Positions 42,305 through 55,830 of a stretch of DNA of 64,000 bases are shown here, piece after piece. The notes beneath the pieces were generated by a model. The model was not told where the DNA came from. It did not search any database and saw only the letters and a program-made list of their open reading frames with translations. Position 1 is the first letter of the stretch. Each line of letters starts with the position of its first letter. This DNA comes from Propionibacteriaceae bacterium (GTDB lineage Bacteria; Actinomycetota; Actinomycetes; Propionibacteriales; Propionibacteriaceae). Location of the stretch: assembly GCA_009782785.1 (NCBI GenBank), contig WRIJ01000002.1, positions 62,001-126,000 of the forward strand. Reading direction: 5' to 3'. The position numbers and the translations under genes were made by a program.

Positions 42305-42450
42305 CACCCGTCACCCTGCGGAGCGGAGCGACTCGCAGGGTCCAGACTACCCAGTTGTTCGAATGTGGTTTCTGGATTCTGCGACTTCGCGCAGAATGAC
42401 GGAGGGAGCGCAAACGGGGCTGGGTTTCGCTCCGCAGAATGACCGGGGTT
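42305..42450. repeat. REP/MITE-like palindromic repeats
   Basis: caccctgcggagcggagcgactcgcagggtccagactacccagttgttcgaatgtggtttctggattctgcgacttcgcgcagaatgacgg. Confidence 0.85.
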
Positions 42451-42459
42451 GCGGAATTG

Positions 42460-43665
42460 CTAGGTGATTGACGTGGGTTCATCGTGTGGGGTGTCGTTGC
42501 GGATGAGTTTGATGTCGTGGGTGGAGGCCCAGATGGTGATGTCGTCGCGACGTAGGCAGGCTCCCATGAGGTCGGGGAACTGATCGGGGGTGCAGGCGAA
42601 ACAGGGGATGTCCATTCCGGCGAGTTTGGTGGCCAGGTCCTTGTCGAAACTGGGGCGACCCTCATCGGTGAGTGCCAACAAAACAAGAACATTCACCCCG
42701 GATCTTTTCAACGACGCCATGCGCTGGAGGAAGGATTTCTGGTCGCCACCCTCATAGAGATCAGTGATCAAAATAAAGTGGGCCTTGGTGGGTTGTTCGA
42801 TGATTTTCGCACAGTAGCCCACCGCCTGATCAATGTCCGTACCACCACCCAATTGGACACCGAACAACACATCAACCGGATCAGCGAGCTCCTCGGTCAT
42901 GTCCACCACTGAGGTGTCGAACACCACGAGTTTGGTCGACACCACGGGCAGGGAGGCCATCACCGCAGCAAAAATCGATGCATAAATAACCGAGGTCGCC
43001 ATTGACCCAGACTGATCCACACACAGGATCACCTCATCAAGGTCCACCTTGCGCCTTTGTCGGCGATGGAAACCCACCAGTTTCTCGGGGATCACCGTGC
43101 GATAGTCGGGTTGATAATGTCGCAGGTTCGCAGCAATCGTTTTCTCCCAGGAAATGTCACTGGGTCGTGGGCGGAAAGTACGTTTGGATTTGTCGACGGC
43201 CCCACGAATCGCCTCACTCATTTTCATCTCAAGTTGTTCCATGAGCTTGGCCACAATCGAAGCGATGACCTCACGCGCTGCGGCTTTCGCCTCATCAGGC
43301 ATGACGTCTTTGAGTTCAATCAGGTCAGCTGCCAGGTTCACATCCTGTTCAACGGAAGCCAGGAATTCTGGCTCAGTGAGCATGTGTTTCAGATCATATT
43401 TTTCGAAAGCATCACGCTGAACAATCTGCACCACGGGGGTGGGGAAGTACGCCCTGATCTCCCCCATCCATGTGGAGAGCGCTTTCGGGGATGACTTGCC
43501 CAAACCTCCGCGAGGTTTCTTGCCGCCCTGGGTTTCACCGTCACCATAGAGTGCATCCAGGGCGCCACACAATCGTTGATCTGATTTCTCCAGTTCGTCT
43601 TGGTCAACACCGATTGCTAGCCGCCAGCGCCTCATCCGGGTGTCGACGGATTCTGGTTCTGTCAT
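42460..43665 (-). CDS. VWA domain protein (CoxE/YehP-like) of the MoxR-associated operon
   Basis: MIDAS motif ILCVDQSGSMATSVIYASIFAAVMASLPVVSTKLVVFDTSVVDMTE...GGGTDIDQAVGYC. Confidence 0.88.
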   Translation of the reverse strand: MTEPESVDTRMRRWRLAIGVDQDELEKSDQRLCGALDALYGDGETQGGKKPRGGLGKSSPKALSTWMGEIRAYFPTPVVQIVQRDAFEKYDLKHMLTEPEFLASVEQDVNLAADLIELKDVMPDEAKAAAREVIASIVAKLMEQLEMKMSEAIRGAVDKSKRTFRPRPSDISWEKTIAANLRHYQPDYRTVIPEKLVGFHRRQRRKVDLDEVILCVDQSGSMATSVIYASIFAAVMASLPVVSTKLVVFDTSVVDMTEELADPVDVLFGVQLGGGTDIDQAVGYCAKIIEQPTKAHFILITDLYEGGDQKSFLQRMASLKRSGVNVLVLLALTDEGRPSFDKDLATKLAGMDIPCFACTPDQFPDLMGACLRRDDITIWASTHDIKLIRNDTPHDEPTSIT

Positions 43666-45947
43666 GAGGCACCCCCCAACAGAATCTTGGTCAACTGATC
43701 GAGGTGTTGCTGCCAGCCCTCACCTTGATCGGGGGCTTCCACCACTGCAGAGGGTGCCACCTTCTTCTTAGGATCGAGCGCAGTAATCAAGCGTTTGCGT
43801 TCCATGGAATCCAGTGATGACAGTACGCGTCTGAGCAACGGAAGATAGTTCACGAAGTCATCCTCCGCCAGGGAGATCAGCCACTGATCGACAGCATCCC
43901 GCAATCCCTCATCGAAGAGCAGGCGTTGTGCTGAGGAGGAGAAGAATCCCTCAAAGAACCCGGCAGCATCCACCGTACTGGTGCCTGGGGAGAGTCGAAG
44001 CCCCACCAATGCCACGACCTGCTGCGCATCCATCACTTCGGCCTCATAGAGCAGTGAGGCAACACATCCTGCTACCCGTGGTGTGGCTTGGGTATCCGCC
44101 AAGATTGCTTCCAAGCCTCCCACCCAGTGGTCCAGGATGTCTTGACTGACGTGGACTAATCGTATAGCCGCCTCCCCGCGAGCCAGCAGGTCCGCAAGAG
44201 TCTTGGCCTCATCGTCATTCAATCCCCGAGCAGCAAACCTCATGGTGACACCTGCTTCGATGACGAGTCGATCAAAGAGGTCCCTCAACGATTCCAGATC
44301 GGTTGGTCGCGCTTGGCCGTACCGCAAAATATTGGCCAAAGGTGGGAAGGTGGAGAGAATGTCGAGGCAGTCACTGGTGAGTGCTGCTCGCTGCCACAGC
44401 AGTGGCAATCCCTGGGCGACAGCCGTGTCCAGGGCCGCAGTCAACGCCTGGTGTATGCCGGTGGCTAGTTCGTTGAGGCTCGTGGCTTCCACAAAGTGCT
44501 CAGCTAGCACACCCGCTGATGCCTGTTCAACGGTGGGCCCGTAGACAAGGTGGGTGACCAGTTCCACCATAAAATCAGGATCGAATTGCAGAACCCAGCG
44601 CTCACGGAAGGTGCCACGGGAGTTCCCTGAGTCAGTCAGGCGCCCCCAGGGAACATTCAAAATATTGAGTCGATGCAACAAGGTGGAGCGGAACAACCCG
44701 GACTCTGATCGCAGATCCACCGACAGGTCCCGTTCCAGTGCTTCGGGTTTCAGATTGGCTTTGCGTGCTTGGGTTTCAAAGTCTGCGATCAGTGGGGCGA
44801 GTGGGGTGTCCGCGGAGATCACACCCACCTCGTTGCCGAGAAGCAGTTCGGTTTCCACCATCCTCCACACGATGGTGTCACCGCCGAAGAGTACCGAGAT
44901 GGCGGCTTCACGCAGTTCCTCAAATCCTGGTTGCGGTCGACCCCGCAAAGCAGCCAACCCTACTGCTAAGCGTTCAGCATCAATGAGTGAGGCCGTCGAA
45001 GCGAGGTGACCTCCTTTGCGTACGACCTGGGCTATTTTCACCAACCAGAGTGACACCATGTCTGTACGGTCACGGTTCTCCCACAGGTGTTTGCACCATC
45101 CGGGTGCCGCCACCCCAGCTCCGTACCCCACAATGTGTGACAGCCGAGGGGAAGTCCAGGGCACCCACGTGAGTTGGGCTTTCTTGCGGGGTAAAGACCC
45201 CACGATGGCGCGGTCCTCAGCTTTGGTGTGTTTGGTGTGAAGAGCGGGTACGTGCCAGGCTCCACACACCACAGCCACCGGACCCGATGCTGTGGCGGCA
45301 CATGATGAGATGGCCAACCGCATGTGAGCTTCGCGTCGTTGCTCACGGACCTCGTCTTCTCCTTCTTTGCTTGACACGTCACGCACCTCAGCCATCGCTA
45401 AAGCGATTGCTTCAAAGATCGGACCAGGATCAGGGTTTTGTTCCACCAGGTCAGCCCACCATGATTCACCATCAGTGTAACCCGCAGCTTCGGCGAGTAC
45501 GCCGATTGGGTCCCGGCGATAGCGGTCCAGGGGGTCGAGTTCCTTGTTTGGTATGGGTTTGTGGTCAGCGGGCTTTGAGGATTCATCGGGCTCGGTGGAT
45601 GTTTCATCATCCACTGTTTCTTGGTCACCCAACAGTGCCGTACTGGGTAGGTCAATGAACTCCAGGTGCGCACCATGGCGTACGGCCCAACACACAGCCT
45701 GATATTCGGGGGAAAACATCGCGAATGGATAGAACGCTGTGTGCGATGGGTTATCAGCAGGATAGGCCAGCAGGGCCACGGGTGGAACCATATCCTCCCG
45801 TGCTAGCAACGGTAGTATCCCCGTTGCATCCGCGGGCCCTTCAACCAGTACGTTCGTGGGCTGCAATTCCTCGAGGGCAGCCAGGAGGGCGCCAGCAGAA
45901 CCGGGTCCGTGATGTCGGATCCCGAAATAGGACACTGGTGCACTCAT
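43662..45947 (-). CDS. DUF5682-like protein
   Basis: 761 aa; SYFGIRHHGPGSAGALLAALEELQPTNVLVEGPADA and VVCGAWHVPAL; operon context. Confidence 0.75.
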   Translation of the reverse strand: MSAPVSYFGIRHHGPGSAGALLAALEELQPTNVLVEGPADATGILPLLAREDMVPPVALLAYPADNPSHTAFYPFAMFSPEYQAVCWAVRHGAHLEFIDLPSTALLGDQETVDDETSTEPDESSKPADHKPIPNKELDPLDRYRRDPIGVLAEAAGYTDGESWWADLVEQNPDPGPIFEAIALAMAEVRDVSSKEGEDEVREQRREAHMRLAISSCAATASGPVAVVCGAWHVPALHTKHTKAEDRAIVGSLPRKKAQLTWVPWTSPRLSHIVGYGAGVAAPGWCKHLWENRDRTDMVSLWLVKIAQVVRKGGHLASTASLIDAERLAVGLAALRGRPQPGFEELREAAISVLFGGDTIVWRMVETELLLGNEVGVISADTPLAPLIADFETQARKANLKPEALERDLSVDLRSESGLFRSTLLHRLNILNVPWGRLTDSGNSRGTFRERWVLQFDPDFMVELVTHLVYGPTVEQASAGVLAEHFVEATSLNELATGIHQALTAALDTAVAQGLPLLWQRAALTSDCLDILSTFPPLANILRYGQARPTDLESLRDLFDRLVIEAGVTMRFAARGLNDDEAKTLADLLARGEAAIRLVHVSQDILDHWVGGLEAILADTQATPRVAGCVASLLYEAEVMDAQQVVALVGLRLSPGTSTVDAAGFFEGFFSSSAQRLLFDEGLRDAVDQWLISLAEDDFVNYLPLLRRVLSSLDSMERKRLITALDPKKKVAPSAVVEAPDQGEGWQQHLDQLTKILLGGAS

Positions 45948-45954
45948 GGGGTGT

Positions 45955-47031
45955 TTACAGGACGCGGGTCAGAGCTGAATAATAAGCGGAATAGTTTCTA
46001 CGTTCACGCAAAGCGGTCTCCACGTATTCACTCAAGATCGCTGAATCCTGAACAGGGTCTTTGACGATTGCCCCAATCATGGAGGGTGCTAGCTGTTCAG
46101 CATCGAGTTTGTTTTTGTTGAACCACACAGCCTGTGACAACCCACCGATCATGGTGGAGATCGCTTCGGCTGTGGACAGGGTCGAGGAGGGTGTTTTCAG
46201 GGTCACTTTCCCGTCAGCGGTGAGCCCTGATCGTAGTTCTCGGAAAATGGTCAGCACGCGTCGGATTTCATCATCCACATTGCGCGGCACGGGTAGCAGC
46301 AGATCATCTGCCTGTTCTGCGACACGCCTCGACACGATGGATACTTCCTCTTCGAGGGAGTCAGGTAGGGGAAGAACCACCACATTGAAACGACGTTTCA
46401 GCGCACTCGACAACTCGTTGACACCTTTGTCACGATTGTTGGCGGTGGCAATGATATTGAACCCGCGCACAGCATCCACTGCTGTGTTCAGTTCAGGGAT
46501 GGGCATCATTTTTTCGGAGAGTACGGTGATGAGTGTGTCCTGTACATCGGAACCCATACGGGTGAGCTCCTCCAGGCGTACGATCTTGCCCTCAGCCATC
46601 GCCCGAAACAGTGGTGTCTTCACCAGGGCTTCATCACTGGGTCCATGGGCCAAGAGCTGGGCATAATTCCAGCCGTACCTCACCTGATTCTCGTCAGTGC
46701 CCGCCGTACACTGAATAACCATGGTCGAGTCCCCAGTGATCGCAGCCGCAAGATGCTCCGACACCCAAGATTTTGCCGTACCCGGCACCCCCAACAACAA
46801 CAAGGCACGGTCCGTGGCCAAGGTGGCGATAGCTGCCTCAATGAGGCGCCGGTCCCCCACATACTTCGGTGTGATCTCTGTGCGATCACTGGCTCTCCCA
46901 CCCATGAGATAGGTGCATACCGCCTGAGGGGTGAGAACCCAATTCGGTGGACGATCCCCGGTGTCTTTGGCGAGGGCGTTCAACTCATCGGCGTACTTCC
47001 TCTCAGCAGGAAGGCGTAAAACATCAGTCAT
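45955..47031 (-). CDS. MoxR-family AAA+ ATPase
   Basis: LLLLGVPGTAKSWVSEHLAAAI Walker A, GKIVRLEELTRMGSDVQDTLITVLSEK, IIATANNRDKGVNELSSALKRRF. Confidence 0.92.
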   Translation of the reverse strand: MTDVLRLPAERKYADELNALAKDTGDRPPNWVLTPQAVCTYLMGGRASDRTEITPKYVGDRRLIEAAIATLATDRALLLLGVPGTAKSWVSEHLAAAITGDSTMVIQCTAGTDENQVRYGWNYAQLLAHGPSDEALVKTPLFRAMAEGKIVRLEELTRMGSDVQDTLITVLSEKMMPIPELNTAVDAVRGFNIIATANNRDKGVNELSSALKRRFNVVVLPLPDSLEEEVSIVSRRVAEQADDLLLPVPRNVDDEIRRVLTIFRELRSGLTADGKVTLKTPSSTLSTAEAISTMIGGLSQAVWFNKNKLDAEQLAPSMIGAIVKDPVQDSAILSEYVETALRERRNYSAYYSALTRVL

Positions 47032-48473
47032 GGGGACTCCTTATCGACGGCGGCAGCTTCCCCCAGAGAAGCAACAAGTCTTAAATAGGCGAGTTCACTA
47101 TCACTATACTGCTCGGGGGAGAGTCTCTCCAATATCGCAGAAGCTGCCTCAGGTGTGCAGACATGACCAAGAGCTCGTAGAGATATCCTGGGCAAAGGTG
47201 AATCATCATCGAGGAACCCAATATCTTCTGGGCGAGCAAAACCGGAAGGGAACTGGCTCCAGGGACCCAGGTAGCCGTCACTCAGAGTTTTCGTACGGAA
47301 AACCTCACGAACAACATCAGTGGTGGCACGGTCTAAGAGGAACCCCCAGGCATCCATGGTGGAGAGAAAATACTCATCGATATCAGCAGTGGACGCGGTT
47401 TTATTCACCATAGTGGTCCAGTCAAATCTCAACTCCCAGGAAGAACAACGTGCTCTCACCAGGTCACGTGAACTCACCTGGAGAGCCTTGCTCAGGTCAG
47501 CAAGACTCGTTGGCACATATCGCGCGCTAAAATAGGCATCCGTAAAAAAAGTGCGGGAGTGGGGCTGCCTTAAACGCTTTTTCAGTAGTCTTTTTAATCT
47601 CCTTGATTCTGGTAGCAGACGCTTGAAACGCCAATTACTTTCGGCCGCATAAACAATGTTTCCTTGGATGCGGAAAGCTGCGCGCAGGTCGGCAAGTTCT
47701 TGCTCAGAAGCAGTGCTCACACCAAGACGGCTCAGTAGCTTCGAGGCTGTTCCCCGGGCAAAGAAATCATGATCCTCGTAACAGGAGGTGAGGTAGTCAC
47801 GATCACTGTCCGACAGGTTCGTTCCCAGAACTTCTATCAGTTGTTCCTGCTGGTCTGGTGTTGCTTGGGCGGCATCGTGAGCGATCAAGTCTCGCGCCTG
47901 GTCTGGGTCTGCCACACGCATTTCTTTGAGTTGGAGGACTCGGCGGTCAAATCTTTGCTTGATGACTTCCTCTTTTTTAGCTTTCCCACGAAATTCGTGC
48001 CACCACTGGAAACCCCCGGAAACAATCCCGGTATGGTCGGCCCATTCTTGCCATGGATCATACGTGGTGGAGTCAGGCAAATCCTCTCCAAACCAGCGAC
48101 GTGCTTCAACTAATGGTGTGCGAGGAAACCAGTCAAAGGGGTGAGCAACAAACCCATAGGAGGCGACACGTTCCAGCAATTCTCCCGCCTGACCTGGTTC
48201 GAGGCAGTTTCGGAAAAACTCCCGACAGTTTTCTGGCATGGGTGGCTTATCCAACTGTGGCAGTTCGGTGATGTTCACCTGATCAAAGTCAGGCACCTGC
48301 GGGCGCAGGGTAAAATCAATACACCAACTAGCAATTGCGACCAGTACCCGTTCGCGTTCCTCATCGTTGAGATGATCCAGGGTTTGTGACCATTGTGGAA
48401 CGTGAGCACTGGCAGGTCGCCCAAGTAGCCACTGGGATGTCATGGCAGCGACAGATTCGGTGATTGAGGTCAT
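47028..48473 (-). CDS. HEAT-like helical protein (DUF5691-like), divergent copy
   Basis: 481 aa; WLLGRPASAHVPQWSQTLDHLNDEERERVLVAIA...RPQVPD and C-terminal LRLVASLGEAAAVDKE. Confidence 0.7.
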   Translation of the reverse strand: MTSITESVAAMTSQWLLGRPASAHVPQWSQTLDHLNDEERERVLVAIASWCIDFTLRPQVPDFDQVNITELPQLDKPPMPENCREFFRNCLEPGQAGELLERVASYGFVAHPFDWFPRTPLVEARRWFGEDLPDSTTYDPWQEWADHTGIVSGGFQWWHEFRGKAKKEEVIKQRFDRRVLQLKEMRVADPDQARDLIAHDAAQATPDQQEQLIEVLGTNLSDSDRDYLTSCYEDHDFFARGTASKLLSRLGVSTASEQELADLRAAFRIQGNIVYAAESNWRFKRLLPESRRLKRLLKKRLRQPHSRTFFTDAYFSARYVPTSLADLSKALQVSSRDLVRARCSSWELRFDWTTMVNKTASTADIDEYFLSTMDAWGFLLDRATTDVVREVFRTKTLSDGYLGPWSQFPSGFARPEDIGFLDDDSPLPRISLRALGHVCTPEAASAILERLSPEQYSDSELAYLRLVASLGEAAAVDKESP

Positions 48474-49513
48474 GAAATTGCTAAGTTCCCATCGTCATCC
48501 AGTGAGTATTTAATTCTCCCATGGGCGGTTTGGGATTCCAGCAGTGTCAGATAATACCCATCCCATATGCCCACTGTTTGATGGGGAACCATGGCATCAG
48601 CGAGAAGGCTTCTGTTGATGATAAGTCTTGCTCGACAGGGAAGTCCCGCCCCTGTGTCGGATATCCACCAATAGTCCATCCACGTGCCACTATCCGCTGA
48701 TCTGATCATCTCAATAAAGCGCCCGCGAGGCAGCAGCAGTGGATAGTTCTGCGCCCACGGCAGGGCTTGAGTGTAGGGAAGAATCTGGGTGAGCGGATCA
48801 TCAAAAATTCGCTGAGGCCATGGACGTTCGCCCCTGGCGACACTCAGGGTCTCGACGACTGCTTCCAAAGGTAGTGGACCTGGATAGAAAACCATCGTGC
48901 CTTCGTACTGTATGCCCACCGTGTAAGGGCTCTCTTCGCGTTCCATCACGGCAGGGTAAACGATGAGAGCAAATTGCGGAAAGGCAGGATCACCTGGCTC
49001 TTCAGATGACTGCTCTAGCAGCCAGGGTGTGGTTTGTGGCGTGATGCTGAGAAACCAGGACGCATGGGTAGCCATGTCATCGTGACCAGCCAAGGCGGTT
49101 TCACCAAGATACTCCCATCGTCCGGTGAGACGCAGAGCATCAGGGTCTTTCAGAACATCCTCTTGAGAGGGATATGTGGTGACATATCGGTTCAAGAATT
49201 GACTGTCTGGATCATCGCGCCACGCCCTGACAAGAGCAACAAGTTTGCCGAATTCACGGATCACCGCTTGTGGTCTTTGTTCAGGTTCCACAGCGAGTAT
49301 TCGCTTGGGGATCCCATCGATGCGTGAAGCGAGTGCTGTTACTTTCCTATCAATCAATCGATCAGCAATATGTCGGCAGTTCTCATCAATCACATCGAGG
49401 AATTTGAGGATCCCCAAAGACAGTTGGTCACTGACCCATTTGTCCAGATCATCCAAGGCCTCAGCGACACCCTCCTGTGTCATCTGAGGTTCCCTAGGCA
49501 TGAAGACCAGCAT
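48470..49513 (-). CDS. Paralogue of the SWIM protein (53889-55427) lacking the SWIM zinc finger
   Basis: VSDQLSLGILKFLDVIDENCRHIADRLIDRKVTALASRIDGIPKRILAVEPEQRPQAVIREFGKLVAL parallels the body of 53889-55427. Confidence 0.75.
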   Translation of the reverse strand: MLVFMPREPQMTQEGVAEALDDLDKWVSDQLSLGILKFLDVIDENCRHIADRLIDRKVTALASRIDGIPKRILAVEPEQRPQAVIREFGKLVALVRAWRDDPDSQFLNRYVTTYPSQEDVLKDPDALRLTGRWEYLGETALAGHDDMATHASWFLSITPQTTPWLLEQSSEEPGDPAFPQFALIVYPAVMEREESPYTVGIQYEGTMVFYPGPLPLEAVVETLSVARGERPWPQRIFDDPLTQILPYTQALPWAQNYPLLLPRGRFIEMIRSADSGTWMDYWWISDTGAGLPCRARLIINRSLLADAMVPHQTVGIWDGYYLTLLESQTAHGRIKYSLDDDGNLAIS

Positions 49514-49545
49514 ATCCCTTCACACAATGGCTGAGTTCCCCATAC

Positions 49546-49640
49546 CAGTCATTCCGTGCGAAGTCACGGAATCCAGACTCAGCAGTCGAACAGATGTGGA
49601 TTCTGGACCCTGCGACTTCGCGCAGGGTGACGGGGGTTGG
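49546..49640. repeat. REP/MITE-like element inside the MoxR/SWIM operon
   Basis: gtcattccgtgcgaagtcacggaatccagactcagcagtcgaacagatgtggattctggaccctgcgacttcgcgcagggtgacgg. Confidence 0.88.
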
Positions 49641-49655
49641 TTGCGCTGAGGGAGG

Positions 49656-51065
49656 TCATGCCAATTCTTGCACCAGTGATCGGGAAGCCTCACCTAGGGC
49701 AACAACAAGGTTGAGTGGAGCCATGTCTTGTTGGCTAAGCTTTTTGGGCGAGAATTGAGTCAACAATTCTTGGGCCAACTCAGGTGGCGCAACCCAGGCC
49801 AGTGGCCCAATGAATTTGTTGTCACGGGCGCGGGCTTGGGATATTTTCACACACGACTCCCACCGAAAATCATTCCACTGCGCAATACCCGGTCGTACAT
49901 CATATAAAGACCGGTGGAGACCTTGGGTGATGAACGCAGACATCACCTTGCGTTGAGTGGTTGTGGAGGCACGCTCGAGTAGTGGTCCGGTAAACACAAA
50001 CTCCAAGTCAGCATCTTTCTTACCATTCCACGAGTATTCAGCAAGGAGCCTGTCACACAACACGTCAACATGATCTTGGGAAGCCGACTGGGCAACCGAG
50101 ACAATGAATGGACCACCCACACCACCACCCAGATCCCACGTTTCAACAAGCTCATCAGGGGTGACCTCAAGAGCAATACTGAGTTCCGCCAGTGTTCCCT
50201 GCCTGATCATGGTCCCCAATTGTTTCTGGTGGCTCTCACCCACGATGGACAACTGCTGAACCCCAATAACTCCTCCATGTCCACCATCGGAAACAGTGAG
50301 CAACCGACGCATCTTATCCAATCTGTCTTCACTGGTGGCTGCGACACCCAAACGCCCCAGTAACCACACAGCCCACTGACTCACCATTCCATCGTGATCA
50401 TTCACGACGGAAAACAGGTAGTCATGGTCATCTTCGGTGAGGTTGATAGCGAAGGTTTTGAGCAACAAGCTGAGGCGCTCTTTACTGCGCACTTCATGAC
50501 CATGATTCACCATCAATTGCCTGGCTCGCCCAGGTTCCGTGATTCGCATCGCAGCGAGTTGAGCCTGCCTGAGAGGGGGCCACGTCTTACTCCATGTTTC
50601 CTCGGTCAGCTCCTGGTATCTCCATGGAATGCGCCCGTGGGTGTAAATCCACTGAAACCAGGGAAGGTATGTTTCAGGGCAATCAGGGATTCTGTCCGAT
50701 CCCGGCCACCCCCAATCTGCCACGTGAACCGTGTAACCATAAGCGTCAATAAGATGGACCAGTTTCTCCGTTGGTACGCTGAAATGTTTCAAGCAGAGAC
50801 GAAACAGTTCCCGACAATTCTCATCCAGCATGGGTTTGCTCAACACTGGTATCGCACACAGTTGGTCAGTGTTGTCAGGCAGTACGGGGCGTACGGCCAC
50901 CTCGGCGTACTGCCCAGCGAGGGCAACCAAACCCCTCTCCTGCTCCTCGGGGGTCCCTTCACCCAGAGCACTCGACCACTGGTCGGGTGCATGTCTGACA
51001 GCAGAGCGACCGATCACCCAATCGGCTTTCATCGCAGGAAGACACGTGGCAGGAGTAGTCATCAC
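49656..51065 (-). CDS. HEAT-like helical protein (DUF5691-like), copy a
   Basis: WVIGRSAVRHAPDQWSSALGEGTPEEQERGLVALAGQYAEVAVRPVLPDN...LVVALGEASRSLVQELA. Confidence 0.7.
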   Translation of the reverse strand: MMTTPATCLPAMKADWVIGRSAVRHAPDQWSSALGEGTPEEQERGLVALAGQYAEVAVRPVLPDNTDQLCAIPVLSKPMLDENCRELFRLCLKHFSVPTEKLVHLIDAYGYTVHVADWGWPGSDRIPDCPETYLPWFQWIYTHGRIPWRYQELTEETWSKTWPPLRQAQLAAMRITEPGRARQLMVNHGHEVRSKERLSLLLKTFAINLTEDDHDYLFSVVNDHDGMVSQWAVWLLGRLGVAATSEDRLDKMRRLLTVSDGGHGGVIGVQQLSIVGESHQKQLGTMIRQGTLAELSIALEVTPDELVETWDLGGGVGGPFIVSVAQSASQDHVDVLCDRLLAEYSWNGKKDADLEFVFTGPLLERASTTTQRKVMSAFITQGLHRSLYDVRPGIAQWNDFRWESCVKISQARARDNKFIGPLAWVAPPELAQELLTQFSPKKLSQQDMAPLNLVVALGEASRSLVQELA

Positions 51066-52465
51066 TACTCCTGTGCCAACGATGGGGAAGCCTCGCCCAA
51101 AGCAACAACCAGTTTCAGGGGAGCCACCATCATGTCACTGGCATCACTGAACCACGTACCCCTCAGGAGCCGAGCGGCGACCTTGGGTGTGGAAACGAAG
51201 GCGAGCTGACTGGCCAGGTTGTATTTATTATGGCCCAATCTCAGGTGAAAGGAGACGGCAACGAAATTAACATCAATCACACGAGCGATACCTGGTGACA
51301 TATCGAAAAAATAATGGAAGTTGTCAGTCGCACCGGTGAGTTTGGAAATAACATGACGAAGGGTCTTTGTTGAGGCGCGAGACAACAGGGATGAGGTAAA
51401 GTCCCACACCAAAGGACGCCCCATTTCCTGTGGTGTCCGCTTCACATTCAGGCACCGCATCACCAGTGCATCAACATCCACCGAGCTCCCAGATAGGGCT
51501 ACCATGTCGAGGAAAGAATCAAAAAGTTCAGTTCGCTTCTTCCACTTTTCCACAATAAAACCGGTGTCCAAATTGAGTGCCCTGCCCAGATCAACAAGAG
51601 TAGTATTCGCGAGTTTCTCTCTCCGAAAGATAATGTCTCTGGTTTCCATCCCTGACGGAACTTTCAGAAAGATGTTCCCAGAGGATTCATGGTGAACAGT
51701 GAAGAAATTCCTCAAATCCACCAGTTGGGACTCGGTTGCCGTGCTCACACCCAACCGACTCAAATAGGCTGAGGCTTGGTGTCTCACCGGGTCAGGAAAA
51801 TCACTTATCAGCCACAAGAGAAAATCCTGGTCGCGTTCAGTGAGATGAGGCTCAACAACACTCACCAAATGCTTCTGCTCAGCTGGAGTGTGGTCGTTCA
51901 GGAAAGAGGAAATCAGCCCATGGGTGCGTTCAGGATCGATCCGATGCAAGGCCCTCAGACGAGCAATTCTTGCTGGTGGCCACATGCCACGCCAGGACTC
52001 CAGCGTTATGTCGGGATACTCCCATGGAACAAGTCCTGAGGTTTCTGCCCAATGAATCCACGGAAGATAAGTCTCCAAGTGAGCATAGGCATCTCCATCT
52101 TTCACACCAGGGAACCAGTCATAAGGGTGAGCAGTGAAACCATAATGGTCAACGATGGTGAGGACTCTGCCCACGTCCATTCCAGGTGTTTGACATGAAA
52201 GGCGAAACAGCTCCCGACAATCATCAGGCAACATGGGTTTGCTGAGAATAGGAAGGTCCAATGATGGTCGTGCTGTGTCCGGCAGTACGGGGCGTACGGC
52301 CACCTCACCGTACTGCCCAGCGAGGGCAACCAAGCGTCTCTCCTGCTCCTCGGGTGTCCCCTCATCAAGAGTGTTCGACCACTGATGAGGCGCATGTGTC
52401 GCAGCGGAACGACCGATCATCCAATCGTTTCTCATTGCTGGAAGACATGTGGCAGGGGAAGTCAT
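51065..52465 (-). CDS. HEAT-like helical protein (DUF5691-like), copy b
   Basis: WMIGRSAATHAPHQWSNTLDEGTPEEQERRLVALAGQYGEVAVRPVLPD...LKLVVALGEASPSLAQE. Confidence 0.7.
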   Translation of the reverse strand: MTSPATCLPAMRNDWMIGRSAATHAPHQWSNTLDEGTPEEQERRLVALAGQYGEVAVRPVLPDTARPSLDLPILSKPMLPDDCRELFRLSCQTPGMDVGRVLTIVDHYGFTAHPYDWFPGVKDGDAYAHLETYLPWIHWAETSGLVPWEYPDITLESWRGMWPPARIARLRALHRIDPERTHGLISSFLNDHTPAEQKHLVSVVEPHLTERDQDFLLWLISDFPDPVRHQASAYLSRLGVSTATESQLVDLRNFFTVHHESSGNIFLKVPSGMETRDIIFRREKLANTTLVDLGRALNLDTGFIVEKWKKRTELFDSFLDMVALSGSSVDVDALVMRCLNVKRTPQEMGRPLVWDFTSSLLSRASTKTLRHVISKLTGATDNFHYFFDMSPGIARVIDVNFVAVSFHLRLGHNKYNLASQLAFVSTPKVAARLLRGTWFSDASDMMVAPLKLVVALGEASPSLAQE

Positions 52466-53892
52466 GTCGGCTCCTGTGAAGGCAGAGATCGGGAGGCTTC
52501 GCTCAGGGCGACAACAAGACTCAAAGGAGCCAGGTTCTCTCCAGGGGTGTAGATGGATGGGAATCTCTCCAGCAACTTGGCTGCGATCTGGGGGGAGGCA
52601 ATGAAAGCAAACGAATCCTCGTAGGTGACATAAGTCTCGACGAAATACATGTTCACTGAAGTGAGGCAGCTTTCACTCCATTGGGAGAATTCGGGGCGCA
52701 TCTTGAACATCAGATCAGATATGTAGTTCACATCATGCGGATGCCGAGACAGGGTTCTCACCATTCGCTGAAGAACCTCTGTGGAAGCGCGAGCGAGAAA
52801 AGGTTGAGTGAGATTGAACATAAGATCACGACCTTGCTTTGATACATCTGGGCCACGTCGCCACTCGCGAAGAATTTTGGCCACAATCCGATCAAAGAGA
52901 ACATCGACCATCGCTTGTGAACCCGATTCAGCGATCCAATCAAACAGATATTGTGGGTAGTGATCAAGATCCCACATCCTGGCTAGTTTCTCCATACTGA
53001 CCCCTAAAACATTACTAAGATCAGCTTGGGTGGCCATCTCACTGCCCCAGCCAGAGCCATAGCGGAAAACCTGGTGGGGAAAGCCAGTAATTGTCAGCTG
53101 ACCATGCCTACGCGCAACAGGAAACGCCTCTCTCAGCGGTTTGCTCAGTGATTGAGTTGACGTGGAGACACCTAATCGACTCAGCAGGTTGGCAGCCTCC
53201 CACCTGATACCGGGGCGTACTGTGGCTCTTGCGTAGCGGATTTTCTCGAGATCGCTTTGGTCGTCGTCAGTGAGATTGACTGACAAAATGCTCACCAGTT
53301 TCACTATCTGATCCTCGTCATCCTCCTTGAGATGCTTGAGAATCAACCCACGTGCTCGCGCAGGCTCTGCTGCCCGCATTTCTCGCAGTAGCTGGTGGCG
53401 AAGAGGAGGCCAGATGCTATACCAGGTTTCCTCGGTCAACTCCGGACATTCCCAGGGGGTACGCCCACCTGTTTCCACCCAATGAAACCATGGAAGATAG
53501 CTCGGATGACCACCTGGAAGATCACTGTCAGGTTGGGGTAACCAGTCGAGTGGGTGAGCTGTGAAACCATAGTATTCAACAAGGTCCAAGAGTCGCCCCT
53601 CAATCTTCGCTGGATGCTGTGGGGAGATACGAAAAAACTCGCGAGATTCAGCGGGCATCGTTGGTTTGCTCAGCACAGGTATCGGGCACAGTTCGTCAAT
53701 GTTATCCGGCAGTACGGGACGTACTGCTATCTCAGAATATTGCCCAGCGAGGGCAACCAAACCCCTCTCCTGGTCTTCTGGGGTGGCATCCCGCAGAAGA
53801 GACAACAACTGCTGGGGCACTCGATCTGCAGCTGGACGGCCCAGGAGCCAATTGACTCTCATAGCGGGGAGCGCTTCGCGAAAGGTATTCAC
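52462..53892 (-). CDS. HEAT-like helical protein (DUF5691-like), copy c
   Basis: WLLGRPAADRVPQQLLSLLRDATPEDQERGLVALAGQYSEIAVRPVLPDN...LSLVVALSEASRSLPSQ. Confidence 0.7.
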   Translation of the reverse strand: MNTFREALPAMRVNWLLGRPAADRVPQQLLSLLRDATPEDQERGLVALAGQYSEIAVRPVLPDNIDELCPIPVLSKPTMPAESREFFRISPQHPAKIEGRLLDLVEYYGFTAHPLDWLPQPDSDLPGGHPSYLPWFHWVETGGRTPWECPELTEETWYSIWPPLRHQLLREMRAAEPARARGLILKHLKEDDEDQIVKLVSILSVNLTDDDQSDLEKIRYARATVRPGIRWEAANLLSRLGVSTSTQSLSKPLREAFPVARRHGQLTITGFPHQVFRYGSGWGSEMATQADLSNVLGVSMEKLARMWDLDHYPQYLFDWIAESGSQAMVDVLFDRIVAKILREWRRGPDVSKQGRDLMFNLTQPFLARASTEVLQRMVRTLSRHPHDVNYISDLMFKMRPEFSQWSESCLTSVNMYFVETYVTYEDSFAFIASPQIAAKLLERFPSIYTPGENLAPLSLVVALSEASRSLPSQEPT

Positions 53893-55427
53893 TGCACCAC
53901 CATGTTTCCATAATTATCGACAGAGAAATGCACCAAGCCAAAAGGTGTCTCAGCGCTCAATAGGGTCAGAGAGAACCCATCCCACAATCCGAATGCCTGC
54001 GAAAGAGGGATACCCATGATTACTTGTGACATGGCCTCATCCAGTTTCGTTTTCAAGGGAAGACCCGCACCTGTGTCCGACTTCCACCAATAACCAATCG
54101 GAGAAACCGATTCATCCTCGCCCCTCTGAGCAACAATTCGCCCAGCAGGGAGCATCAGGGGAAAATCGAGGGTCCACGGCATAGCCTTGATGTAATCGCT
54201 GATCTGGCTTAAAGGGTCCTCGGTATACCAGGGCAGCCACTGTTCGCGGTCCTCTACCTCAACAAGATCCTGAGCCAAAGCCCTCAACGGGAGCGTGCCA
54301 GGATAGAACACCATCGAGCCCTCGTACTGTTTGCTGATCGTGAAAGGGGCCTGACGGTGACCCGCTGAAGCCGGGTAATAGTCAAGCAGGAGAGCATACT
54401 GTGGATAAGAAGTGCGATCTGGTAGACCGCCACTGTCATCCACAGCCAACGGTGTTCGCTGAGAGGTGACACTGAGAAACCAGGTGGCAATAGTCACCAT
54501 CTGATCACGGCGCGTCGACACGACCGTACCAACAACCTCCCATCGTCCCTTGAGGTGGAGAGCCTCCGGGTTTTCCAGGACATCGACGCGGGCCGGTGCA
54601 CTAGCCACCTGACGGTTGATGAGTTGGCTGTCAGGGTCCGCTCTCCACGCTTTCGATATGAGTACGAGTTTGCCGAACTCCCTGATCACCGCATCAGGTT
54701 GCTGCTCAGAATCAAGGGCGAGGATGCGTGCTGGCATCTCATCGATACGCGAAGCCAAAGCCGTGGCTTTCTTGTCGACCAGGCGGGCAGCAATACTGCG
54801 ACAGTTCTCCTCAATAACCTTCAAAAATTTCAGGATCCCTAATGAGAGCTGATCACTGATCCACTGGTCGAGTTCATCCAACCCCTCAGCGATCCCCTCC
54901 TTTTTGTCACTGATTCTTTTGAGCTTGGCTGCGTCACGGCGTTGCTGGTTTTGCTGGGTGCGAGGACTCGGCTCATCGGTGGTCACCTCAGCGAGGCTCG
55001 CAGACGACGAGGTGTTCTCCTCGGGTTTCTTGGCCGTACGCCTGCGACCCATCCAATCCTTCACCCACTGGGGAACCTCAGCTTCTGTGAAATCACCAGT
55101 GTCGTTGGCCACGATCAGCATCAAGGCCAGTGAATGCTTGCAGGGAAACTTCCTCGACGGGCAGGTGCACTTATATCCAATATTGTCGGTGTCGATCACT
55201 GCCCGATAAGGATGAGCCCCCGAGCCTTGACAGTCCCCCCACCACAAACTCCCCTCATGGTGAAGATTCACCCACTGTGATCCCCCAGTGAGCGCCATAG
55301 CAGCATTCAGTGACTTCTGATCAGGAGCCAGCTGCTCCACAGTTTTCAAACCCAGTGGTGGGTCATCCTTCCTTCTCATGACACCCAGTGTATCCTCCGC
55401 GCACCCCACCACCGTCACCCCGCGCAA
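53889..55427 (-). CDS. SWIM zinc-finger protein
   Basis: YKCTCPSRKFPCKHSLALML matches CxCx(n)CxH; downstream region shared with 48470-49513. Confidence 0.85.
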   Translation of the reverse strand: MRGVTVVGCAEDTLGVMRRKDDPPLGLKTVEQLAPDQKSLNAAMALTGGSQWVNLHHEGSLWWGDCQGSGAHPYRAVIDTDNIGYKCTCPSRKFPCKHSLALMLIVANDTGDFTEAEVPQWVKDWMGRRRTAKKPEENTSSSASLAEVTTDEPSPRTQQNQQRRDAAKLKRISDKKEGIAEGLDELDQWISDQLSLGILKFLKVIEENCRSIAARLVDKKATALASRIDEMPARILALDSEQQPDAVIREFGKLVLISKAWRADPDSQLINRQVASAPARVDVLENPEALHLKGRWEVVGTVVSTRRDQMVTIATWFLSVTSQRTPLAVDDSGGLPDRTSYPQYALLLDYYPASAGHRQAPFTISKQYEGSMVFYPGTLPLRALAQDLVEVEDREQWLPWYTEDPLSQISDYIKAMPWTLDFPLMLPAGRIVAQRGEDESVSPIGYWWKSDTGAGLPLKTKLDEAMSQVIMGIPLSQAFGLWDGFSLTLLSAETPFGLVHFSVDNYGNMVVQ

Positions 55428-55830
55428 TCCACCACCGTTACCCCGCGAAATCCACCACCGTTACCCTACACCTCAACCACCGTCACCCTGCGCGAAGTCG
55501 CAGGGCCCAGAATCCACATCATCCACCATGGGAAGCAACCAAACAATCTCACCAACCACACACAATCCCAGTCGTGGGAACTATCACATCTGGATTCCGT
55601 GACTACGCACGGAATGACAGCACCAAACTCCCACCGCCGTCACCCTGCGGAGCGCAGCGACTCGCACGGGCCCAGACTACCCAGTTGTTCGAATGTGGTT
55701 TCTGGATTCTGCGAGTCGCTTCGCTCCGCAGAATGACCAGGGGTAAGCACACCGCAGACGGGGGTGGGTGTCACCGTTATATGGGGGGTGGGTGTCACCG
55801 TTATATGGGGGTGGGTGTCACCGGTGTACG
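55417..55830. repeat. REP/MITE-like palindromes plus short tandem repeats
   Basis: caccctgcgcgaagtcgcagggcccag, gattccgtgactacgcacggaatgac, caccctgcggagcgcagcgactcgcacggg, and gtgggtgtcaccgttatatgggg tandem units. Confidence 0.8.

What the first reader, a model, noticed from the sequence alone, without database searches (positions are those of the whole stretch)
42460..55427. Nine-gene MoxR/VWA/DUF5682-like/SWIM/HEAT-like operon: best candidate for an under-described system
Seen directly: nine co-directional minus-strand genes, several junctions with 4-bp ATGA overlaps (43662/43665, 47028/47031, 48470/48473, 52462/52465, 53889/53892). Reading 5'->3' on the minus strand the order is SWIM protein, three helical paralogues, SWIM-less paralogue, fourth helical paralogue, MoxR AAA+, a 761-aa DUF5682-like protein, and a VWA protein with an intact DxSGS MIDAS. 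Established: MoxR ATPases work with VWA partners as remodelling or metal-insertion machines, and SWIM fingers (CxCxnCxH) bind nucleic acid or protein. Inference: an AAA+/VWA remodelling machine with an expanded set of exchangeable adaptors. A chaperone, stress or conflict role is possible; substrate unknown.
Basis: partly seen in the sequence, partly recalled or inferred. Interest (0 to 1): 0.78.

Follow-up and report, generated by a model that had tools for sequence, protein, structure and literature searches.

The report
YehL-type AAA+ machine with multiplied adaptors
This is a member of a widespread, never-characterised bacterial protein-remodelling machine (the E. coli YehL kind), unusual because this bacterium has multiplied its fast-changing helper proteins from two genes to six while keeping one motor.

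Summary
It is not an unknown assemblage. The core is a five-gene operon, SWIM - DUF5691 - MoxR - DUF5682 - VWA(CoxE), which recurs in order in most of ~110 loci from at least seven phyla. It is the counterpart of E. coli yehLMPQ (MoxR 42%, VWA 35%, DUF5682 28% identical); its MoxR belongs to the published YehL subfamily (PMC3893208). I found no functional study.

What is new here is the expansion. Every other scorable locus has one DUF5691 and one SWIM gene; the window has four DUF5691 and two SWIM-family genes, one without its zinc finger. They duplicated in this lineage (clade support 100/100 and 100/99), are old (synonymous sites near saturation) and remain intact. DUF5691 and SWIM are also the fastest-diverging parts (24% and 34% mean identity against 68% for MoxR).

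DUF5682 looks like a TraB/TIKI-type putative metallohydrolase. Best mechanism: one MoxR-VWA-DUF5682 engine served by several recognition modules. Substrate unknown. New variant of a known kind.

The parts
53889..55427 (-). Gene 1: SWIM zinc-finger protein (512 aa as called; likely start 55379), finger CTCPSRKFPCKH, helical middle, beta-rich (OB-like) C-terminal half
   Evidence: Pfam SWIM, finger motif, AF2 model pLDDT 87, weak Foldseek matches to SSB/OB folds and ZSWIM8
52462..53892 (-). Gene 2: H1, DUF5691 HEAT-like paralogue
   Evidence: Pfam DUF5691 46.4 bits, cut-off 27; H1-H4 clade 100/100
51065..52465 (-). Gene 3: H2, DUF5691 paralogue
   Evidence: Pfam DUF5691 36.2 bits; first 65 residues homogenised with H3
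49656..51065 (-). Gene 4: H3, DUF5691 paralogue
   Evidence: Pfam DUF5691 37.9 bits
48470..49513 (-). Gene 5: SWIM-less paralogue of gene 1 (no zinc finger, keeps helical and beta-rich parts)
   Evidence: 49% identity to residues 176-511 of gene 1; sister of gene 1, support 100/99
47028..48473 (-). Gene 6: H4, the most divergent DUF5691 paralogue, next to MoxR as the single DUF5691 is elsewhere
   Evidence: Pfam DUF5691 52.7 bits; 28-30% identical to H1-H3
45955..47031 (-). Gene 7: MoxR AAA+ ATPase, YehL subfamily
   Evidence: AAA_5; 42% to YehL over 364 aligned columns, 25% over 101 to RavA; 81-84% to kin in the same family
43662..45947 (-). Gene 8: DUF5682; N-terminal ~265 aa TraB/TIKI-like alpha/beta domain with GIRHH, EGP, REAHM and GAWH motifs, then an alpha-helical domain
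   Evidence: Pfam DUF5682; AF2 pLDDT 90.6; hhalign to TraB 74% with controls below 3%; BFVD TraB match prob 0.90
42460..43665 (-). Gene 9: CoxE-type VWA protein with intact MIDAS, no C-terminal effector domain
   Evidence: Pfam VWA_CoxE; MIDAS motifs; 35% to YehP
49514..49655 (.). 142-bp gap between the two SWIM/DUF5691 blocks; holds a copy of the genome's interspersed palindromic repeat (49548-49639), no room for a lost SWIM finger
55474..55737 (.). Region upstream of gene 1 with further copies of the interspersed repeat
42308..42456 (.). Copies of the interspersed repeat just downstream of gene 9

Best explanation
The cluster encodes a YehL-type MoxR/VWA remodelling machine with a multiplied set of recognition proteins. 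The single MoxR hexamer and the single CoxE-type VWA protein form the ATP-driven motor, as NorQ does with NorD. DUF5682, which is fused to the VWA protein in some relatives, is the working subunit: its N-terminal domain is a TraB/TIKI-like putative metal-dependent hydrolase, followed by a helical domain. SWIM and DUF5691 proteins, fused to each other in other relatives, form the recognition module: zinc finger plus beta-rich domain plus HEAT-like arm. In this lineage that module was duplicated and diversified into SWIM with H1/H2/H3 and a finger-less copy with H4, so one engine probably accepts several targets or signals. Shown: gene content, homology, conserved order, fusions, lineage-specific duplication, long retention, rate gradient. 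Inferred: complex formation, hydrolase activity, which part recognises what. Unknown: substrate and trigger.
For: Homology to YehL/YehP/YehM and YehL-subfamily placement (PMC3893208). Conserved five-gene order. SWIM-DUF5691 fusions (L151, L155, L180, L080) and DUF5682-VWA fusions (L055, L078, L079). Divergence gradient MoxR 67.5 > VWA 56.9 > DUF5682 43.8 > SWIM 34.3 > DUF5691 24.0% over 91 operons, in every bin of MoxR identity. H1-H4 monophyletic, SWIM/SWIM-less sisters, sister genus single-copy. Codon identity in the H1-H3 bodies 38-40% (34% expected by chance) with intact frames and 33-34% aa identity: old and maintained. TraB-like domain: hhalign prob 74%, score 43.5 over 203 columns, against 25 or less for unrelated, Ere or one-side-reversed profiles; the TraB entry has the highest probability (0.90) of the 50 listed BFVD matches; four motifs jointly in 111 of 130 DUF5682 proteins.
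Against: No physical interaction or activity data exist. The TraB relationship is below usual significance by single sequence (Pfam E 0.06 in 2 of 28), and the PDB fold search with the whole model was swamped by the helical domain. The 142-bp gap leaves co-transcription open. High divergence of DUF5691 could reflect weak constraint rather than recognition. The OB-fold reading of SWIM rests on weak matches (E 0.012 and above).
Confidence: 0.5

Rival explanations
1. A cofactor-insertion chaperone of the CoxDE/NorQD type: MoxR and the CoxE-type VWA open a client metalloenzyme and help insert a metal; DUF5682 and SWIM carry or sense the metal.
For: VWA is CoxE-type; NorQ/NorD is a solved precedent (NorQ match; PMC13036017); E. 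coli-like operons carry DUF4132, a family discussed in connection with MolR and molybdopterin (PMC8533742, text only); yehM mutated in one copper-evolution study (PMC12409786).
Against: CoxDE and NorQD lie beside their clients, whereas 148 proteins flanking the named loci show no recurring metalloenzyme: the commonest families are generic and occur in at most 4. It does not explain the multiplied, fast-diverging DUF5691.
Confidence: 0.2
2. A biological-conflict (anti-phage) system using the MoxR/VWA pair as a switch, with DUF5691/SWIM as invader sensors and DUF5682 as effector.
For: Patchy presence (40 of 98 genomes of the family, none of the other 5 sampled genomes of the genus, 21 of 297 of the phylum); apparent transfer between phyla; fast-diverging putative sensors; published MoxR-vWA conflict systems (PMC7159879); 35 plasmid records.
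Against: No PADLOC family except marginal matches. Flanking genes: 12 PADLOC families at E<=1e-10, matching at most 15 of 148 proteins, several generic, with no matched control. No VMAP, iSTAND or variable effector domain on the VWA. Only one phage record carries DUF5682.
Confidence: 0.2
3. The expansion is neutral: tandem duplication of dispensable accessory genes near interspersed repeats, tolerated and drifting.
For: Repeats at both ends and between the two blocks; DUF5691 and SWIM diverge fast everywhere; the finger is lost in gene 5.
Against: Synonymous sites of the paralogue bodies are near saturation, yet all six frames are intact and 33-34% of residues agree among H1-H3; ATG overlaps are kept; no pseudogene among six copies.
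Confidence: 0.1

Closest known systems
E. coli yehL-yehM-yehP-yehQ (YehL subfamily of MoxR ATPases)
   Same: MoxR, DUF5682, VWA and a SWIM protein in one operon; 42/28/35% identity of the first three
   Different: E. coli has DUF4132 (YehI) upstream instead of DUF5691, the SWIM gene last and of another kind (no BLAST match), and no duplication
Standard five-gene operon SWIM-DUF5691-AAA-DUF5682-VWA annotated by PGAP (e.g. Deinococcus taeanensis L286; Methylosinus L243 lacks an annotated VWA)
   Same: Same families and order
   Different: One DUF5691 and one SWIM gene, against four and two here
NorQ/NorD and CoxD/CoxE
   Same: MoxR AAA+ with VWA partner; CoxE-type VWA; NorQ matches the window MoxR (E 8e-6)
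   Different: Dedicated neighbouring client enzyme; no DUF5682, SWIM or DUF5691
MoxR-vWA ternary conflict systems (VMAP, iSTAND; PMC7159879)
   Same: MoxR/VWA pair; window MoxR scores 31.6 bits with bpMoxR, cut-off 27
   Different: No VMAP, iSTAND or beta-propeller third component and no effector domain on the VWA
TraB/PrgY/GumN (TIKI) superfamily
   Same: DUF5682 N-terminus aligns over 203 columns with GxxH, E, R and GAxH motifs in register
   Different: Remote; DUF5682 has an extra ~500-aa helical part, and in nearly all loci read it sits beside an AAA+/VWA pair

Membership tests
YehL-type MoxR system | MoxR closer to YehL than to other MoxR subfamilies | tested here: met
   42% over 364 aligned columns to YehL, 25% over 101 to RavA; only these two and NorQ were compared, no full MoxR tree
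YehL-type MoxR system | Neighbouring DUF5682 (YehM), VWA (YehP) and SWIM (YehQ) genes | tested here: met
   the SWIM protein is not alignable to YehQ by BLAST, only the finger family is shared
Standard five-gene operon | Order SWIM-DUF5691-MoxR-DUF5682-VWA, one copy each | tested here: not met
   Order kept, copy number not: 4 DUF5691 and 2 SWIM-family genes
TraB/PrgY/GumN (TIKI) superfamily (for DUF5682) | Profile similarity over the whole catalytic domain | tested here: inconclusive
   hhalign 74%, score 43.5 vs 25 or less in controls; Pfam TraB only E 0.06 in 2 of 28; smaller profiles gave 6.8%
TraB/PrgY/GumN (TIKI) superfamily (for DUF5682) | Two GxxH motifs, Glu and Arg conserved | tested here: met
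   H13, E36, R205, H232; all four motifs in 111 of 130 proteins; spatial clustering not measured
TraB/PrgY/GumN (TIKI) superfamily (for DUF5682) | Metal-dependent hydrolysis | not testable with these tools
   needs biochemistry
CoxDE/NorQD cofactor-insertion chaperones | MoxR plus CoxE-type VWA | tested here: met
CoxDE/NorQD cofactor-insertion chaperones | Client metalloenzyme encoded alongside | tested here: not met
   Window neighbours are a lipoate ligase, a DEAD helicase and an MFS transporter; no recurrent client in 148 flanking proteins
MoxR-vWA ternary conflict systems | VMAP or iSTAND third component; effector domain C-terminal to the vWA | tested here: not met
   Pfam: only VWA domains in gene 9; no such partner
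Known anti-phage systems (PADLOC) | Protein family match | tested here: not met
   Only marginal matches, best E 4e-4

The most novel reading that the evidence does not exclude
One AAA+/VWA engine with a TraB-like hydrolase uses a family of diversifying recognition modules (four DUF5691 and two SWIM-type proteins), with 5' ends kept alike by gene conversion and bodies free to diverge: a bacterial single-motor, many-receptor targeting system, possibly for foreign or damaged nucleoprotein.
Probability: 0.22. Interest if true: 0.8.

Novelty: new variant of a known kind. Interest (0 to 1): 0.52.

Why it matters
YehL is one of the seven named MoxR subfamilies, and full-text searches of 5.4 million open papers found no functional study of its operon partners. 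Three results make it testable: a predicted catalytic domain in DUF5682, fusions that say which subunits should touch, and a natural strain in which only the recognition half has been multiplied. The last is a built-in experiment on what sets substrate choice in MoxR/VWA machines.

Tried and rejected
Sequence search of PDB with DUF5682 or DUF5691 profiles: nothing meaningful. Foldseek of the whole DUF5682 model in PDB: only unspecific helical repeats, TM 0.2 or less by query length. EreA-type esterases as the DUF5682 relative: rejected, hhalign 2.5%. Small TraB profile: 6.8%, inconclusive until enlarged. Recent horizontal import of the cluster: GC is that of the window, though the subtype is nearest to alphaproteobacterial ones. 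Promoter scan: no more sites than in shuffles. Phage origin: one unannotated phage record at 29% identity. Bin contamination as the source (bin 6.48% contaminated): judged unlikely, because MAGs of another genus of the same family hold the same subtype with MoxR 81-84% identical, but not excluded. A flank survey for defence genes lacks a matched control. My first iterative SWIM profile picked up DUF5691 proteins and was rebuilt.

Full report
What is there. The nine genes are real and close-packed on the minus strand. Transcribed order: SWIM, H1, H2, H3, SWIM-less, H4, MoxR, DUF5682, VWA. Pfam places all but the SWIM-less protein; that one is a 49% identical copy of the C-terminal two thirds of gene 1. 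Catalytic and metal motifs of MoxR, VWA and the SWIM finger are intact. A 142-bp gap separates SWIM-less from H3 and holds an interspersed repeat.

What it belongs to. E. coli K-12 yehL-yehM-yehP-yehQ is MoxR, DUF5682, VWA, SWIM. Window proteins align along most of their length with YehL (42%) and YehP (35%), and over residues 1-506 with YehM (28%); the MoxR is far from RavA. YehL is a recognised MoxR subfamily (PMC3893208). Paper searches returned no functional study of DUF5682, DUF5691 or yehLMPQ; only about half of the papers of the last search were listed.

How common. I read 136 loci around DUF5682 genes from actinobacterial genomes and a named scan of genome contigs. Of the 113 arrangements with enough flanking DNA, one of which is the window itself, 77 are exactly SWIM-DUF5691-MoxR-DUF5682-VWA; others add or substitute DUF4132, invert SWIM/DUF5691 or lack a detected DUF5691 (DUF5691 can fall below detection, and my simple ORF caller leaves fused genes under one label). 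Named loci come from Pseudomonadota, Actinomycetota, Bacteroidota, Cyanobacteriota, Chloroflexota, Planctomycetota and Verrucomicrobiota; a Deinococcus plasmid has it too. All 101 well-covered SWIM proteins of the compared loci, the window's own gene 1 among them, keep the finger.

What is special in the window. It is the only locus with more than one DUF5691 or SWIM gene. Among all 199 genomes of the family only this one has more than one match to the H1-H4 profile. The nearest kin, fragmentary genomes of another genus of the same family, carry a single SWIM-DUF5691-MoxR-DUF5682 run in L238, with SWIM and a partial DUF5691 in L239; MoxR is 81-84% identical and DUF5691 28-39%. H1-H4 form a clade (100/100) beside these single copies, and SWIM and SWIM-less are sisters (100/99). 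The simplest history is duplication of the SWIM-DUF5691 pair, loss of the finger in one copy, and further DUF5691 duplication in the other; the exact order among H1-H4 is not resolved. In the DUF5691 bodies conserved residues of H1-H3 use the same codon in 38-40% of cases, near the 34% expected by chance, so the copies are old; in residues 1-65 of H2/H3 it is 74%, which points to gene conversion of the 5' ends.

The subtype nearest to the window's DUF5682 is alphaproteobacterial (Mesorhizobium, Roseibium, 50-56%) with one Bifidobacteriaceae MAG, not the usual actinobacterial one (38%). GC is even across the window, so any transfer is not recent.

How it probably works. MoxR/VWA pairs are motors: NorQ pulls on and twists NorD (PMC13036017). 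Fusions show the likely contacts: DUF5682 with VWA_CoxE in L055, L078 and L079, SWIM with DUF5691 in L151, L155, L180 and L080. Divergence is ordered MoxR, VWA, DUF5682, SWIM, DUF5691, in every bin of MoxR identity. I therefore read MoxR-VWA-DUF5682 as the constant engine and SWIM-DUF5691 as the variable recognition part. This assignment is inference.

DUF5682. AlphaFold gives a confident model (pLDDT 90.6): an N-terminal alpha/beta domain and a helical remainder. Invariant or nearly invariant residues include R11 H12 H13, E36, R205, E206, G229 and H232. A profile of 133 sequences aligns with 38 TraB/GumN proteins over 203 columns at 74% probability, score 43.5, with GIRHH on GSIH, EGP on VEAD, REAxM on the RN motif and GAWH on GALH; controls (Ere, VWA, MoxR, SWIM, DUF5691, one side reversed, DUF5682 C-terminal part) reach 25 at most. 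A viral TraB protein has the highest probability (0.90) of the 50 listed viral fold matches, though its TM-score is low (0.37 by target length) and its E-value 0.15. TIKI proteins are described as metalloproteases and the wider family as potential ones (PMC12329661), so a metal-dependent hydrolase is likely but not shown. A MoxR-vWA pair with a fused metallopeptidase is reported from jumbo phages (PMC7824862), a precedent for joining such a motor to a peptidase.

SWIM proteins. The model (pLDDT 87) has the finger, a helical bundle and a beta-rich C-terminal part whose best fold matches are SSB/OB proteins and ZSWIM8, all weak. Nucleic-acid contact is possible, not shown.

Role. No recurrent client gene lies beside the operon, unlike CoxDE or NorQD. 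Defence is possible from patchiness and diversification, but no defence family matches well and the flank survey is uncontrolled. The window organism is a 1.88-Mb actinobacterial bin with 6.5% contamination; I could not name it.

Noticed in passing
window 42308-42456, 49548-49639, 55474-55737: Palindromic interspersed repeat (core CGAAGTCGCAGRRTCCAGA), 65 places in the genome at up to 2 mismatches and none for the reversed control; it bounds the operon and splits its two blocks.
   Followed up: partly
window 55760-55830: Three head-to-tail copies of a 24-bp unit GGGGGTGGGTGTCACCGTTATATG between the operon and the MFS gene.
   Followed up: no
window 49656-53892: First 65 codons of H2 and H3 are homogenised (80-87% DNA identity over the first 60) while the bodies are near synonymous saturation: likely gene conversion at gene starts.
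   Followed up: partly
L055, L078, L079: DUF5682 and VWA_CoxE fused in one protein of 1220-1596 aa next to MoxR, without SWIM/DUF5691.
   Followed up: partly
L084, L085, L086: Second DUF5682 subtype in Actinobacteria, with VWA, MoxR and a divergent DUF5682 and no SWIM/DUF5691.
   Followed up: no
L147, L152, L161, L162, L166, L170: Bacteroidota operons that carry both DUF5691 and a DUF4132 protein, the E. coli-type neighbour.
   Followed up: no
L288 (Hymenobacter radiodurans plasmid): DUF5682 annotated as three overlapping pieces, probably a broken gene or sequencing errors.
   Followed up: no
MT835988.1, 10638-12752: An unannotated 14-kb faecal 'Bacteriophage sp.' record encodes a DUF5682 protein (28.6%); may be bacterial DNA.
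   Followed up: no
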